A stretch of DNA of 64,000 nt from Longibacter salinarum (GCF_002554795.1 NZ_PDEQ01000001.1:310001-374000); one strand, 5' to 3'; counted from the stretch's first letter, positions 50,500 to 55,871 are shown. Notes: a model not told the origin generated them from the sequence alone. Made by a program: numbers and translations.

Positions 50500-51621
50500 T
50501 CAAGAATTGGACGCCGTGGATCGGTCAACGGCAACGGCACCGACGCTGCGACCTTTCCACGAGACGCGACCGGTCCAGTGGGAGATGGCAGAGTCGAGTT
50601 GCAGAGCGCTACCGAGAAGATAGGAGACGGGAGCGAGGAGCGCGAATAGGGGCGAAAATCGAGTCAGGCGGTCCGTCGTTCCTTTGAGCAGGAGCACACT
50701 CGCCAGAAATCCTGGATGCACGAATGGGGAGGCAACGAAGGTAAGGAAAAAGAACAAGTAGAGCCCGACGAATGATGCAGGGGAACCGCCGAGAATCAGA
50801 TACGCATTTTTCCGAAATCCGCGCCAGGCATCTCCGAAGGTACTGTACATGTAGACGGTGATCTCATCGCGGACATCCAGCAGTGCCGGCGTAAACCCTT
50901 CCCGTTTGAAGTAGCGGCCGATCTCTACATCCTCGAGGACCTTGTTTTTGACCTCTACATGCGGCTCGTATGCGTGATACCGATCCGCATCGATCATCCA
51001 GCATTGGCCATTCAAGGCACCGAGCGAATCGATGCGTAGTGGGCGAACCAGCGGCCAGGGAAGTCCGGTGAGGATGGCGTTCGGCACGAGACTCACAAGA
51101 ATCTGAGCGGCTCCCCGTAAACGCGGCAATCCGGTCGCAACGGTATCGTCCGGCAGGGCAGACTCGCGTTCCACGATGCGTCGGAGGGCGCCCGAATCGG
51201 CGAGCTCCGTGTCGGCATCGAGAAAGAGGTAGCGATCCCCCTCGGCGTGGGAGGCGGCAACGTAGCAGGCGTGCGGTTTGCCTAACCAGCCCGGCGGGGG
51301 ACCCTCGCCGCGCACCGGTCGAAGACGATTATCGTTCGCGGCGGACAATACGTTCCACGTCGCGTCCGTCGAGCCATCATCGACAACAATGACTTCGAAG
51401 TGCTCGTAGTCCTGTTCGAGGAGCGAGGGGAGGAGGCGCCGGAGGTTCTCTTCCTCGTTCCGCGCCGGAATCAGGATGGAGACAAACGGCTCGATATCAG
51501 GCTGCTTGCGCGTCCGCTTCCGTCGCAGATAAATGATGTTGGCGAGAAGGGTGACCCAGATAAGAACGTGAACGCCGGCAAGATATGGGGCGATGAAGTC
51601 GGCGTAAGGGAGGGTCGGCAT
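50500..51621 (-). CDS. GT2 family glycosyltransferase, carotenoid type (CruG/CrtQ-like)
   Basis: A 373-residue membrane-associated GT2 enzyme. An N-terminal helix (about 10-32) precedes the catalytic domain with SILIPARNEEENLRRLLPSL, VVDDGSTDAT, a DxD-type FLDADTE and EDVEIGRYFKREG. Two to four C-terminal membrane helices follow (about 285-350). The W(L)GKPHAC region and the total architecture match carotenoid glycosyltransferases such as CruG and CrtQ. In this gene run it would transfer a sugar to a hydroxylated carotenoid. Substrate is inferred from context. Confidence 0.85.
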   Translation of the reverse strand: MPTLPYADFIAPYLAGVHVLIWVTLLANIIYLRRKRTRKQPDIEPFVSILIPARNEEENLRRLLPSLLEQDYEHFEVIVVDDGSTDATWNVLSAANDNRLRPVRGEGPPPGWLGKPHACYVAASHAEGDRYLFLDADTELADSGALRRIVERESALPDDTVATGLPRLRGAAQILVSLVPNAILTGLPWPLVRPLRIDSLGALNGQCWMIDADRYHAYEPHVEVKNKVLEDVEIGRYFKREGFTPALLDVRDEITVYMYSTFGDAWRGFRKNAYLILGGSPASFVGLYLFFFLTFVASPFVHPGFLASVLLLKGTTDRLTRFSPLFALLAPVSYLLGSALQLDSAISHWTGRVSWKGRSVGAVAVDRSTASNS

Positions 51622-51672
51622 TAGAGAGGGAGTGGGGGCTGGGGCAAACGGCGGAGGCGGAACGAGATATGT

Positions 51673-52296
51673 TTATACGCTGGGAGGATCCGCCAGGAAC
51701 TGGTCGTAGAGCGGAGGTGGGTTTTCGGCGAGGAGTTCGGTGCGCAGTTCGTCGGCTTCACGTGTCTGACCGTTTTCTTTCATGGCAAGCCAGAGCCAGC
51801 TTCTCGCTTCGATTCGAGAGATGCCGCAATCCGGGTGATGGTCTAGCGACTCGATAAGTGCGCGAAACACATCTACGGCAGCGGCGACGTCTTTGCCGGC
51901 AATTTCGGGGCGAAACATGAGGGACTGGCCTTTGACGAGGAGAACGAACGGTTCATCCGGATCGCGCTCTTCTGCCTCTTCCAGCCGACTCATCGAACGC
52001 CGGCCGTAGCGCATGGCCATGAAAAAGTTCGTTTCGCCTGCTCGGTACGCCCACAGACCGGAGAGAAGCGCAAGCTCTCGCGCGGAGGCGTCCGGCCCCA
52101 GTTCCTCCGGAATGTCATCAATCACATCTGTGTCCTCGGTGAGGGGATAGAGGCGATAGCGCGCCATCAGCGACTCGGCTCGCGTGTCCGACTCGGCAAG
52201 CATGTGCCGAAGCGCATCGGCATTCTGCTGTGCGTAGTGGGCCTGCGTGGAATCGGCGAACGTGAGGGACAAGGTCAGCAAAAGGGTTGCGATCAT
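51673..52296 (-). CDS. Secreted helical (TPR-like) hypothetical protein in the carotenoid run
   Basis: A 207-residue protein with a short signal peptide (about 1-14; IATLLLTLSLTFADS) and a helical body (about 20-180) containing repeats of ALLSGLWAYRAGE and AAAVDVFRALIESL type, reminiscent of tetratricopeptide helices. Its start codon overlaps the acyltransferase stop by 4 bp (ATGA at 52293-52296), so the two are translationally coupled. No catalytic motif is visible. It may be a periplasmic partner of pigment assembly; this is only inference from location. Confidence 0.72.
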   Translation of the reverse strand: MIATLLLTLSLTFADSTQAHYAQQNADALRHMLAESDTRAESLMARYRLYPLTEDTDVIDDIPEELGPDASARELALLSGLWAYRAGETNFFMAMRYGRRSMSRLEEAEERDPDEPFVLLVKGQSLMFRPEIAGKDVAAAVDVFRALIESLDHHPDCGISRIEARSWLWLAMKENGQTREADELRTELLAENPPPLYDQFLADPPSV

Positions 52297-53009
52297 AGGG
52301 GCTTGAGGTAGCGCGCAAAGAGGGACGCAAAGCGTGAGAAGTCCCACACGTCGGTCGGGCTCGGCCGTCCGTTCAACAGGACGTGGTGTGGTGCTTCGGG
52401 CAACGTTTCACGAAGCGTATGCCAGAGTCGCGTTAAACGATCCCGTTCGTTTCCATCCGGTGCAGAATGAGGAGTGCCAGGAAGGAGGCAAGCCGTTGGA
52501 TGTTTATCGCCCCAGAACGTAACGTCGATGGCGATCGGCCACCAGGTCGCTTCTGGATAGAATCGTGCGAGGCGTTGCGCGGCCCCTTCAGGAAACGGAT
52601 GAATGCCCTCCGCCGGGGTGTGCAATTCGCCTTCCGGAAAGTACACCATCACGGTTCGTGGCGCCTCTCGAAATCTGCGGGCGGTCCTCCGAATGGTTGC
52701 GGCGCGGCGTCGCGAGTCGTCCGTTGGAAATGGCTGTGCCCCTACGGCAGCGAAAAAAGGGTAGCGATCCCATTCTTCCATCCAGATGGTCCCGGGGCGA
52801 CCGAGAGCGTGTCGAAGGAGATACCACAGCAGATGCCCGTCGTAGAAGTGATGATGGTTTGCATACAAAATCACGGGTGATGTGTCCGGGAGCCCCTCGG
52901 TTGCTTTCGGAGGCGTCTCATCCATCCATGCGATACGTCGAAACGTCGACCGCAACTCGTATCGCATCAACGCCCGAACGGCGACCGTACCGAATCTCTT
53001 CAACAACAA
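52293..53009 (-). CDS. PlsC-like acyltransferase in the carotenoid run
   Basis: A 238-residue protein of the lysophosphatidic-acid acyltransferase superfamily. The catalytic HxxxxD motif is in LYANHHHFYDGH (H-H-F-Y-D region), FFAAVGAQPF and YFPEGELH (FPEG substrate site) follow at the expected distances. Such enzymes move a fatty acyl group from acyl-CoA or acyl-ACP to a hydroxyl. Located between crtB and the GT2 gene, it is a good candidate for acylating the sugar of a carotenoid glycoside; general phospholipid synthesis is the alternative. Confidence 0.85.
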   Translation of the reverse strand: MLLKRFGTVAVRALMRYELRSTFRRIAWMDETPPKATEGLPDTSPVILYANHHHFYDGHLLWYLLRHALGRPGTIWMEEWDRYPFFAAVGAQPFPTDDSRRRAATIRRTARRFREAPRTVMVYFPEGELHTPAEGIHPFPEGAAQRLARFYPEATWWPIAIDVTFWGDKHPTACLLPGTPHSAPDGNERDRLTRLWHTLRETLPEAPHHVLLNGRPSPTDVWDFSRFASLFARYLKPL

Positions 53010-53063
53010 ACCGGGAGGTTGGGAAGGGCAGAAAGAATCACGACGAGGTTCAGTCGTGTCCGC

Positions 53064-53993
53064 TCAGGCGGCCACGTGTGGAGCTCGTGTTTTGAGCCGG
53101 TTTTTCCGTGCCTCGTAATTGTCGATCGCAACAAGAAAGAGCTTTCGCCCGAGGGAGGCGTACGCTCGGTGGTTCAGATTGTCGTAGCCGTTCGCGCGGA
53201 CCTCATTCATAATCTCGCGATACATGCGCGCGGCTCCACGGATTCCAGTCCGGCACTTCCACGGCAGCGCGTCGATCCCGGAAAACCCCTCAAGGTACCG
53301 CCACTCCGCTTCCTCCATGATCGGTTCCAGTAGCTCGGAGTAGTTCGGAGGGACGGTGCCAGATTCTAGATCGTCTGGGTTCACGCCGTGGTCTTGCATC
53401 CACGTTGACGGCAGGTAGATCCGGTCCAGCCGGCGGGCGTCCTCGCCGACATCACGAAGAATATTCGTGATTTGCATTGCGATGCCGAGCTTCCGCGCCG
53501 GCTCCTCGAGTTCATCACGGTGGCGGTCATCGTCGACGAGGAACGGGAGCATCATTGCCCCAACGCTCCCACCAACCAGGTTAGAGTAGTAGATCAGATC
53601 ATCGAGCGTGTCCACCGTTTCGCCCTCCAGGTCCCACCGAGCCCCGGCAATGAGTTCGTACAGTGGCTCTCGGTCGAGTTGGTACGTCTGATGGACCTCA
53701 TGCAGTCGCCTCCAGAGGATGTTCTCCACAGGCGGGTTGCCGAGTAGCGTTTTGTCGAGGGCAGCGTTTAGTTCATCTAGTTCTCGGAGTGTTTGAGCAG
53801 CTCCGACCTCTAGCACCCGATCATCCGCGAGCGTATCGACCCGGCGGCAGAACAGATACAGAGTCGCGATGGGCATCTGCACCGAGCGCGGGAGGAAGCG
53901 CGTGGCCAGAGAGAACGTACGGGAATGGTGGCGAAACGACGTCCAGATCCACTGATCTTCGTCGGCGCGCGTATCTAGAGTTGCCGTAGACAT
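53064..53993 (-). CDS. crtB: Phytoene/squalene synthase (CrtB-type)
   Basis: A 309-residue all-helical prenyl synthase condensing two geranylgeranyl diphosphates to phytoene. The first Asp-rich motif is RRVDTLADD (about 52-60), the second NILRDVGEDARRLDRIYLP (about 180-198) and FRHHSRTFSLATRFLP is the conserved N-terminal region. All Asp ligands needed for Mg2+ and diphosphate are present. It could in principle be a squalene synthase, but the neighbours point to carotenoids. It lies 53 bp after cruF. Confidence 0.93.
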   Translation of the reverse strand: MSTATLDTRADEDQWIWTSFRHHSRTFSLATRFLPRSVQMPIATLYLFCRRVDTLADDRVLEVGAAQTLRELDELNAALDKTLLGNPPVENILWRRLHEVHQTYQLDREPLYELIAGARWDLEGETVDTLDDLIYYSNLVGGSVGAMMLPFLVDDDRHRDELEEPARKLGIAMQITNILRDVGEDARRLDRIYLPSTWMQDHGVNPDDLESGTVPPNYSELLEPIMEEAEWRYLEGFSGIDALPWKCRTGIRGAARMYREIMNEVRANGYDNLNHRAYASLGRKLFLVAIDNYEARKNRLKTRAPHVAA

Positions 53994-54046
53994 ATTCAGG
54001 CAGAAGGCTAGAGCATACAGTCGGACACGAACGGGTCACATACCAC

Positions 54047-54919
54047 TCAGGCCTGCTGTGGCTGAGGCGTTTGAATCGTAGGCCGCCGCTTTCCGTGGAG
54101 ATAGAGTACGATGAATGGAACGGCGGTGGCTAGCGTACCGACGAGAACGGCGAGGTACAGGCCTTCCAGTAAACAAATGCCGAGAGGAAACGCGCAGTTG
54201 ACGATGTAAAGCCATGGAGCCCACTCGTTTGTTTCTTTGAGTCCGCCTCCGATGTACTCGTAACCAAAGATAATCACGAGCGAGACGACGAACCATCCAA
54301 TCCAGTTCGACAACGGCATTCCGTAGTAAAATCCGTCGACGGCGTACGACCAGAACGGAACCTGCCCTTGGGTCATTGCAGGATCGAGCGACACGTCCCA
54401 CAGCACCATATATACGGTTCCAACCAGCACCCCGGCCCAGCGCGAACTCACAACGCGTCGAGCAAGGTCAAAGGACACGACGGCCATCGCGAACCAGGAG
54501 GGCGGGATAAAATACGGCACGTGGTCGAACATTTTGGCTCCCAACCACTGCGTGTACTCGTAGCCTCCGAACGGAAGTGCGATGTCGTTCCAGGTCGCGA
54601 AACCCGTCGTTCCGATCAATTCGCTGCTTCCGCCGATCAGACAGCCCCATGCGATAAAGAACGTCATTCGCTTCCACCCCAGAGACGGTCCATACATCAG
54701 TACAGGCAGGATTGCCAGCATCGCCATGTACGTCCAGGTTGGCGTTTTGACCAGCTTATCGTAGATGGGACCGAAAACGCCCCAGGCCGACGGGAAGAGT
54801 TTCAGAAGGAGCATTCCCAGCAAGCTGAACACAACCGAGCCTACCAGTAACCAAAACCCAAATCGAAACAACTGGTCGATGGAGTCGCGGAAGCCCTGCG
54901 AGGCAGTATCCGTGGGCAT
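54047..54919 (-). CDS. cruF: CruF-like carotenoid 1',2'-hydratase (DUF422)
   Basis: A 290-residue membrane protein with about eight helices. The family signature is in GGSSELIGTTGFATWNDIA, VPYFIPPSWFAMAVVSFDLARRV (split: VPYFIPPSWFAM and AVVSFDLARR), LWDVSLDPAM and FYYGMPLSNWIGW. CruF adds water across the psi-end double bond of gamma-carotene or similar, giving the hydroxyl later glycosylated. It is the first gene of the carotenoid run and lies immediately before crtB. No crtI or crtY is in the window, so earlier and later steps must be elsewhere. Confidence 0.9.
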   Translation of the reverse strand: MPTDTASQGFRDSIDQLFRFGFWLLVGSVVFSLLGMLLLKLFPSAWGVFGPIYDKLVKTPTWTYMAMLAILPVLMYGPSLGWKRMTFFIAWGCLIGGSSELIGTTGFATWNDIALPFGGYEYTQWLGAKMFDHVPYFIPPSWFAMAVVSFDLARRVVSSRWAGVLVGTVYMVLWDVSLDPAMTQGQVPFWSYAVDGFYYGMPLSNWIGWFVVSLVIIFGYEYIGGGLKETNEWAPWLYIVNCAFPLGICLLEGLYLAVLVGTLATAVPFIVLYLHGKRRPTIQTPQPQQA

Positions 54920-55178: not shown

Positions 55179-55871
55179 ATGATAGCCATCCGCCCGCCGG
55201 AGTATTTCCCGCGCTCCGCGTACATTTCGCTGATGCAACATGCAGATCACTTCGTGCTCGCGGACACGTTTCAATATAGTCGGCAATCGTTCCAGAACCG
55301 TAGCAAGCTCCGCAATCCAAACGGCTGGCAGTGGATTACTGTGCCGCTGCAGGGATACGCGTACGGCGAACCGATTCATCGGGTAAAGATCGATCACGAT
55401 AATCGGTGGAAGGAGCGTCATTGGCGCTCTTTCATGTACAACTATCGTTCAACGATGTACTTCGAGTATTACGAGGATCGGTTTCGGCCGATGTTTGATG
55501 AGGAAGAATGGCCAACGCTTGCAGATCTGACGTGTCGCTCGGTCGAAGTGGAAGCGAAACTGATGCAAATCGACACGCCGATCATTCGGGCTTCTGAACT
55601 GAACGGTGCTCCGGCCTCGGTCGATGACATCCTCGCCACCATGGATGCAGAGGGCGAATCGCTTCTTTGCCTGCCCGATACCGCTGCCGTCAACGCAAAG
55701 ACCGGACGCGACGTACACGTACTACAGTTTGACCTGGAACCATACCGCCAGAACTTCGAGGGCTTTGAGGCCGAGATGTCTGCGATGGATTTCGCCTTTA
55801 ACTACGGCCCGGATGCCGCTGTCCGAATCGCCGATGCGGGGACCATTCAACCGTATGCGGACACTGCGTAG
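55179..55871 (+). CDS. WbqC family protein
   Basis: A 230-residue protein. PPEYFPRSAYISLMQHADHFVLADTFQYSRQSFQNRSK (in pieces: PPEYFPRSAYISLM, then DTFQYSRQSFQNR) matches the WbqC N terminus, and WITVPL and HRVKIDHDNRWKERHWRSF follow. WbqC-like proteins occur in sugar, lipopolysaccharide or exopolysaccharide gene clusters, and their reaction is not settled. It is divergent from cruF and precedes dcd. The start ATG at 55179 fits. Confidence 0.88.
   Translation: MIAIRPPEYFPRSAYISLMQHADHFVLADTFQYSRQSFQNRSKLRNPNGWQWITVPLQGYAYGEPIHRVKIDHDNRWKERHWRSFMYNYRSTMYFEYYEDRFRPMFDEEEWPTLADLTCRSVEVEAKLMQIDTPIIRASELNGAPASVDDILATMDAEGESLLCLPDTAAVNAKTGRDVHVLQFDLEPYRQNFEGFEAEMSAMDFAFNYGPDAAVRIADAGTIQPYADTA

What the first reader, a model, noticed from the sequence alone, without database searches (positions are those of the whole stretch)
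50500..54919. Candidate gene set for an acylated carotenoid glycoside
cruF, crtB, a PlsC-like acyltransferase, a secreted helical protein and a carotenoid-type GT2 are contiguous and closely spaced (51-54 bp gaps, one 4-bp overlap). The enzymatic logic is phytoene formation, hydration of the end group, glycosylation and acylation, which is what an acyl-glycoside C40 pigment such as salinixanthin would need. The acyltransferase is the least characterised step, and this location makes a specific prediction for it.
Basis: partly seen in the sequence, partly recalled or inferred. Interest (0 to 1): 0.66.

Follow-up and report, generated by a model that had tools for sequence, protein, structure and literature searches.

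The report
Operon for an acylated carotenoid glycoside
Five neighbouring genes in a salt-lake-type bacterium probably make the sugar-and-fat-tailed red pigment salinixanthin or a close relative, as earlier authors had largely proposed; the overlooked part is a secreted helical protein that travels with these pigment genes through much of the phylum and may handle the pigment outside the inner membrane.

Summary
In detail: cruF, crtB, a PlsC-fold acyltransferase (AT), a small secreted helical protein (HEL) and a GT2 lie head to tail (gaps 53, 54, 51 bp; one 4-bp overlap). All five are present in 23 of 30 AT loci from related genomes, and in Salinibacter altiplanensis, Salinivenus, Longimonas and Roseithermus. 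The genome also holds crtI, crtO, a lycopene cyclase and a rhodopsin 76% identical to xanthorhodopsin, the salinixanthin-binding protein. The pigment reading is very likely right, but not new: papers of 2009 and 2018 already assigned CruF, CruC and CruD roles in Salinibacter or Rhodothermus. The AT is probably not the housekeeping PlsC: it lacks FPEGTRS (the genome's PlsC candidate has it), is never found without CruF in 60 genomes, and its family pairs with GT2 and either CruF or CrtC-like hydratases. New, as far as I could search: HEL is a divergent secreted TPR-like protein; a probable remote homologue (HEL') follows CrtB in other clusters or is fused to CruF-CrtB; and the hydratase reported missing in Rhodothermus marinus is the N-terminal half of its 'CrtB'. 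HEL's function is open; pigment carrier or assembly partner is my best guess.

The parts
54047..54919 (-). cruF, carotenoid 1',2'-hydratase
   Evidence: NCBIfam TIGR03460 (CruF) 244 bits against a cut-off of 154.7, PF04240 E 4.4e-35
53064..53993 (-). crtB, phytoene synthase
   Evidence: PF00494 E 4e-69; both Asp-rich motifs present (DTLADD, DVGED); related domain is fused to CruF in R. marinus
52293..53009 (-). acyltransferase (CruD-like), proposed to acylate the carotenoid glycoside
   Evidence: PF01553 E 1.6e-7; NHX4D motif kept, block III FPEGELH rather than FPEGTRS; model matches GPAT, PatA and LpxM
51673..52296 (-). HEL, secreted all-helical TPR-like protein of unknown function
   Evidence: no Pfam or NCBIfam match; hydrophobic N-terminus in nearly all orthologues; model pLDDT 94.5, TPR-like neighbours; profile match to secreted TPR proteins E 4.8e-22
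50500..51621 (-). GT2 glycosyltransferase, proposed carotenoid 1'-O-glycosyltransferase (CruC role)
   Evidence: PF00535 E 2.3e-22; nearest NCBIfam models HpnB and CruG, both below cut-off

Best explanation
The five genes form a tailoring operon for an acylated C40 carotenoid glycoside, most likely salinixanthin or a close relative. CrtB makes phytoene. CrtI, CrtO and a lycopene cyclase encoded elsewhere in the genome make a monocyclic keto-carotene. CruF hydrates C-1' of the open end, the GT2 puts a hexose on that hydroxyl, and the AT adds a fatty acyl chain to the sugar. HEL is exported and acts on the periplasmic side; I think it most likely binds or hands on the finished pigment, or holds the membrane enzymes together. 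Shown by sequence: gene identities at family level, order, conservation, co-distribution, and the presence of other pathway genes and of a xanthorhodopsin orthologue. Inferred: the substrate of each enzyme, the product, and everything about HEL's function.
For: Five genes together in 23 of 30 loci and in named Salinibacter, Salinivenus, Longimonas and Roseithermus records. The same genome encodes a CrtI-family desaturase, CrtO-like ketolase, lycopene cyclase and a rhodopsin 76% identical to S. ruber xanthorhodopsin over 271 residues. In 60 relatives AT never occurs without CruF, and its one occurrence without GT2 (G041) is a contig that ends inside HEL. The genome has three further PF01553 proteins, one with canonical FPEGTRS. 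The AT family sits with GT2 and a CrtC-like hydratase in other members of the class (L198, L200, L201, L202, L204) and with GT2 and CruF in other families of the phylum (L208, L209, L212, L213, L215). R. marinus, which makes salinixanthin (PMC5822342), has CruF-CrtB, HEL', AT and CrtI side by side.
Against: No pigment data exist for this organism here. The GT2 and CrtB fall below every curated equivalog cut-off. No 2'-hydroxylase was looked for and no separate 3',4'-desaturase was assigned. The Rhodothermus AT belongs to a different branch from the window AT. GT2 occurs without any AT found in G027, G037, G052 and G055, so the acyl step is not universal.
Confidence: 0.87

Rival explanations
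1. The AT is an ordinary lysophosphatidic acid acyltransferase (PlsC) that happens to lie in the operon; the pigment is a plain glycoside.
For: It belongs to PF01553 and its nearest NCBIfam model is the PlsC subfamily, though far below the cut-off (20 against 103 bits). Its family profile reaches a solved PlsC at E 3e-5.
Against: The genome has a separate PlsC candidate with the FPEGTRS motif (98 bits to the PlsC model) and two more PF01553 proteins. The operon AT has FPEGELH and orthologues even lose the Glu (YFPSG, YFPGG). Its distribution follows CruF and GT2. The tree separates the crt-linked ATs from the three paralogues, though that split has weak support and long branches.
Confidence: 0.06
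2. HEL (within the operon reading) is a periplasmic carrier or chaperone for the finished carotenoid glycoside ester, moving it towards the outer membrane or presenting it to binding proteins.
For: HEL or its probable remote homologue HEL' is found in 48 of 51 genomes with the GT2 and in 1 of 9 without (that one is a truncated contig), never both in one genome. HEL' follows CrtB in clusters of other families of the phylum and is fused after CrtB behind a hydrophobic segment. Among the closest folds are a bacterial sterol transporter (Z 14.6, rmsd 3.5 over 183), the haem binder HusA (Z 14.2, rmsd 2.8 over 161) and Tat-T (Z 12.7, rmsd 3.4 over 184).
Against: Unrelated TPR proteins such as APC subunits score the same, so the fold says little about the ligand. 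HEL' occurs in R. marinus, for which PMC5822342 reports no rhodopsin, so loading xanthorhodopsin cannot be its general role. G030 and G054 have the enzymes without a clear HEL.
Confidence: 0.35
3. HEL (within the operon reading) is a scaffold or stability factor that holds CruF, CrtB, AT and GT2 together at the membrane and has no small ligand of its own.
For: Natural fusion CruF-CrtB-HEL'; TPR folds usually bind proteins (established knowledge).
Against: An N-terminal signal-type segment puts HEL on the side opposite to where CrtB, AT and GT2 are expected to work (topology inferred), so it could touch only membrane or periplasmic segments of them.
Confidence: 0.3
4. The cluster makes an acylated C50 or other non-salinixanthin pigment, since CruF matches the archaeal bisanhydrobacterioruberin hydratase model best.
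For: TIGR03460 244 bits, above cut-off.
Against: No elongase is in the operon; the xanthorhodopsin orthologue, CrtO and lycopene cyclase point to a monocyclic C40 keto-carotenoid; R. marinus CruF also matches TIGR03460 best, though below its cut-off, and that species makes salinixanthin (PMC5822342).
Confidence: 0.05

Closest known systems
Salinixanthin pathway of Salinibacter ruber and Rhodothermus marinus
   Same: Same enzymes and, in Salinibacter relatives, same gene order. Roles for cruF, cruC and cruD were already proposed for S. ruber in PMC2615216 (2009), and for CruC and CruD in R. marinus in PMC5822342 (2018).
   Different: In R. marinus CruF and CrtB are one 586-residue protein, the AT is from a distant branch, CrtI is beside it and the GT2 is far away. 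PMC5822342 reported no CruF in R. marinus.
CruC and CruD of green sulfur bacteria (chlorobactene glucosyl- and lauroyltransferase)
   Same: Chlorobiaceae genomes (recognised by the FMO protein) hold a member of the same AT family with the NHxxWWDG motif, which may be CruD.
   Different: There the gene is not near crt genes. That it is CruD itself could not be checked: the CruD sequence and its paper were not available.
Thermomicrobium roseum carotenoid cluster (trd_1158-1167)
   Same: PMC2615216 reports CruF fused to an acyltransferase, next to CruC, CrtB, CrtI and hypothetical proteins.
   Different: The fusion partners differ: CruF with AT there, CruF with CrtB and HEL' in relatives here. 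Its sequence was not examined here.
Secreted TPR proteins of Bacteroidota; HusA; bacterial sterol transporter 7t1s
   Same: HEL shares their fold and, for the Bacteroidota proteins, a clear profile match (E 4.8e-22; Z 14.2-14.6).
   Different: HEL has no recognisable TPR motif by Pfam and is tied to carotenoid genes.

Membership tests
CruF carotenoid hydratase | score above the curated cut-off of TIGR03460 | tested here: met
   244.3 bits against 154.7
Phytoene synthase CrtB | SQS_PSY domain with both Asp-rich motifs | tested here: met
   PF00494 E 4e-69; motifs in the translation
Phytoene synthase CrtB | score above an NCBIfam CrtB equivalog cut-off | tested here: not met
   best CrtB model 177 bits against 500. 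The role rests on linkage and on the fusion to CruF in relatives, so 'works as CrtB' is an inference.
CruD-type carotenoid glycoside acyltransferase | PF01553 fold with HX4D motif, in one family with ATs of other carotenoid clusters and of green sulfur bacteria | tested here: met
   identity of the Chlorobiaceae member with CruD not shown
CruD-type carotenoid glycoside acyltransferase | transfers an acyl chain to a carotenoid glycoside | not testable with these tools
   needs an assay or a knock-out
PlsC lysophosphatidic acid acyltransferase | block III FPEGTRS and score above the PlsC cut-off | tested here: not met
   FPEGELH; 20.1 bits against 102.95
CruC or CruG carotenoid glycosyltransferase | score above a curated model of a carotenoid glycosyltransferase | tested here: not met
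   CruG 73.9 bits against 600, HpnB 96 against 379; role assigned from linkage only
TPR protein superfamily (HEL) | recognisable TPR repeat in Pfam | tested here: not met
   no Pfam family at E up to 1
TPR protein superfamily (HEL) | homology to proteins with TPR repeats, and TPR-like fold | tested here: met
   profile-profile E 4.8e-22 to secreted proteins that do have Pfam TPR hits; all-helical model with TPR neighbours

The most novel reading that the evidence does not exclude
HEL and HEL' are one family of exported TPR-like proteins that bind carotenoid glycoside esters and move them from the site of synthesis to their place in the envelope: a dedicated bacterial carotenoid carrier, partly fused to the biosynthetic enzymes.
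Probability: 0.28. Interest if true: 0.75.

Novelty: new member of a known kind. Interest (0 to 1): 0.5.

Why it matters
Salinixanthin is the light-harvesting antenna of xanthorhodopsin, yet in the papers I could read no gene for its glycosylation or acylation has been tested by knock-out. The cluster gives one small set of candidates for all three tailoring steps. It explains the hydratase reported missing in Rhodothermus marinus, a species with working genetics, and it points to an uncharacterised exported protein that accompanies these pigment genes over wide evolutionary distance. How large hydrophobic pigments travel in the bacterial envelope is poorly known, and this makes one possible route testable.

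Tried and rejected
The papers on CruC/CruD and on the S. ruber genome are not in the library, and a search for the CruD and CruC locus tags gave no useful paper, so the link to experimentally tested CruD stays indirect. A first profile comparison of HEL with HEL' was not convincing (E 0.046); with a broader HEL' set it reached E 2.2e-4 at 45% probability, against E 0.34 for an AT control, so I treat them as probable remote homologues, not as proven. Broad-profile AT hits in Chlorobiaceae and in L210 and L214 are not next to carotenoid genes, so family membership alone does not prove a carotenoid substrate. The secreted 184-189 residue protein in the HEL position of L213 and L215 is not HEL; it looks SRPBCC/START-like to my eye, but Pfam, NCBIfam and PDB searches gave nothing useful. 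Promoter and terminator scans of the operon were at the level of shuffled sequence.

Full report
OBSERVATION. Pfam names four of them (Caroten_synth, SQS_PSY, Acyltransferase, Glycos_transf_2) and has nothing for the small protein between AT and GT2, called HEL here. CruF passes the curated cut-off of its NCBIfam model; CrtB and the GT2 do not pass any equivalog cut-off and are named from domain plus context.

CONSERVATION. Searching 60 related genomes with the AT gave 45 with a match. In 23 of 30 loci read, all five genes lie within the 3.7-kb stretch taken around the AT; one more (L010) has cruF at the very edge of the stretch read, and several others end at contig borders. A named scan with HEL found the cluster in Salinibacter altiplanensis, Salinivenus iranica and lutea, Longimonas halophila, Roseithermus sacchariphilus and several metagenome assemblies. 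The genome with a 3,551,823-bp contig in the same genus as S. altiplanensis is, by the size I remember, S. ruber itself, and it has all five genes in order. The window's nearest relative is the assembly GSL.Bin3: G001, same genus, on a contig of the same length, 40,174 bp.

REST OF THE PATHWAY. The same genome has a CrtI-family desaturase (631 bits to TIGR02734), a CrtO-like ketolase, a lycopene cyclase and a rhodopsin; the last three are neighbours about 110 kb from the operon. The rhodopsin is 76% identical over 271 residues to the solved xanthorhodopsin 3ddl. Xanthorhodopsin of S. ruber carries salinixanthin (stated in PMC5822342), so an acylated carotenoid glycoside in this organism is likely. 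No pigment was measured here.

THE ACYLTRANSFERASE. It keeps the HX4D motif but has FPEGELH in block III, and orthologues vary even the Glu; the genome's PlsC candidate has FPEGTRS. Three other PF01553 proteins are available for other lipid acylations. The AlphaFold model (pLDDT 87.5) matches GPAT, the mannoside acyltransferase PatA and LpxM; this shows the fold, not the substrate. Across 60 genomes AT (counting the three divergent ones found beside CruF-CrtB fusions) is never found without CruF; its one case without GT2 is a contig that ends inside HEL. G030, counted as lacking AT in that table, was later found to have a divergent one next to its CruF-CrtB fusion, which strengthens the pattern. 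These counts are not independent events, because related genomes share ancestry. A broader profile finds the family beside GT2 and a CrtC-like hydratase in five loci of the same class (the CrtC label is a weak NCBIfam match, E 2e-9 to 3e-11 for the three tested, below the cut-off), and beside GT2 and CruF in other families of the phylum. Two unrelated hydratase types going with the same AT-GT2 pair is the best comparative support that both act on the hydrated end of the carotenoid. Chlorobiaceae also carry a member, which may be CruD.

FUSIONS. In the genome with a 3,261,604-bp contig, which with a 125-kb plasmid adds up to the 3,386,737 bp published for R. marinus DSM 4252 (PMC3035238), CruF and CrtB are one protein of 586 residues. 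It is followed by a 186-residue exported protein, the AT and CrtI, matching the four-gene operon of PMC5822342, which names crtB, crtI and cruD but reports no CruF. The strain with partial deletion of crtB and crtI lacks carotenoids in that paper. In four other genomes the fusion is longer (810-853 residues): CruF, CrtB, a hydrophobic segment and a domain homologous to the 186-residue protein, called HEL'. One genome has a CrtE-like domain fused to CrtB.

HEL. Almost all orthologues have a hydrophobic N-terminal segment of signal-peptide type. The model is all helical with mean pLDDT 94.5. Its nearest folds are TPR proteins; at the top, and tied, are the PTPIP51 TPR domain, a bacterial sterol transporter, an APC subunit and HusA. 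HEL is a divergent member of a large group of secreted TPR proteins of Bacteroidota (E 4.8e-22). HEL' is probably a remote relative (E 2.2e-4). HEL and HEL' exclude each other and together are present in 48 of 51 genomes with GT2. HEL' also stands directly after CrtB in three clusters from other families of the phylum, in the order crtI, crtB, HEL', lycopene cyclase, crtI-family gene, AT, GT2, cruF. The association is thus old. What HEL does is not known; binding the pigment and holding the enzymes together are both open.

NOVELTY. The pathway assignment was made in print before: PMC2615216 states that S. ruber has cruF and cruD as separate enzymes and apparent orthologues of the other psi-end enzymes; PMC5822342 proposes CruC and CruD for R. 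marinus. I found no description of HEL, HEL' or the CruF-CrtB fusion in the open-access library, but subscription papers were not searchable.

Noticed in passing
L079:8597-10357 (-), also L078, L080, L216: CruF and CrtB fused in one protein in Rhodothermus-like genomes; explains the hydratase reported missing in R. marinus.
   Followed up: partly
L081, L082, L083, L084: Three-part fusion CruF-CrtB-hydrophobic segment-HEL' of 810-853 residues.
   Followed up: partly
L213:5570-6139 (-) and L215:9432-9986 (+): A different exported protein of 184-189 residues, SRPBCC/START-like to the eye, occupies the place between GT2 and cruF.
   Followed up: partly
L085:10622-12505 (+): Polyprenyl synthetase (CrtE-like) fused to CrtB, after a stand-alone cruF overlapping by 4 bp.
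   Followed up: no
L080:8742-9632, L082:10990-11952, L216:4669-5631: MerR-type (CarH-like to the eye) regulator just upstream of the CruF-CrtB fusion; none lies next to the window operon, where a WbqC-like gene diverges at 55179-55871.
   Followed up: no
G000:C1 about 474-479 kb (L101:7249-11524): CrtO-like ketolase, lycopene cyclase and a xanthorhodopsin orthologue lie together in the window's own genome.
   Followed up: partly
L198, L200, L201, L202, L204: AT paired with GT2 and a CrtC-like hydratase instead of CruF in other members of the class.
   Followed up: partly
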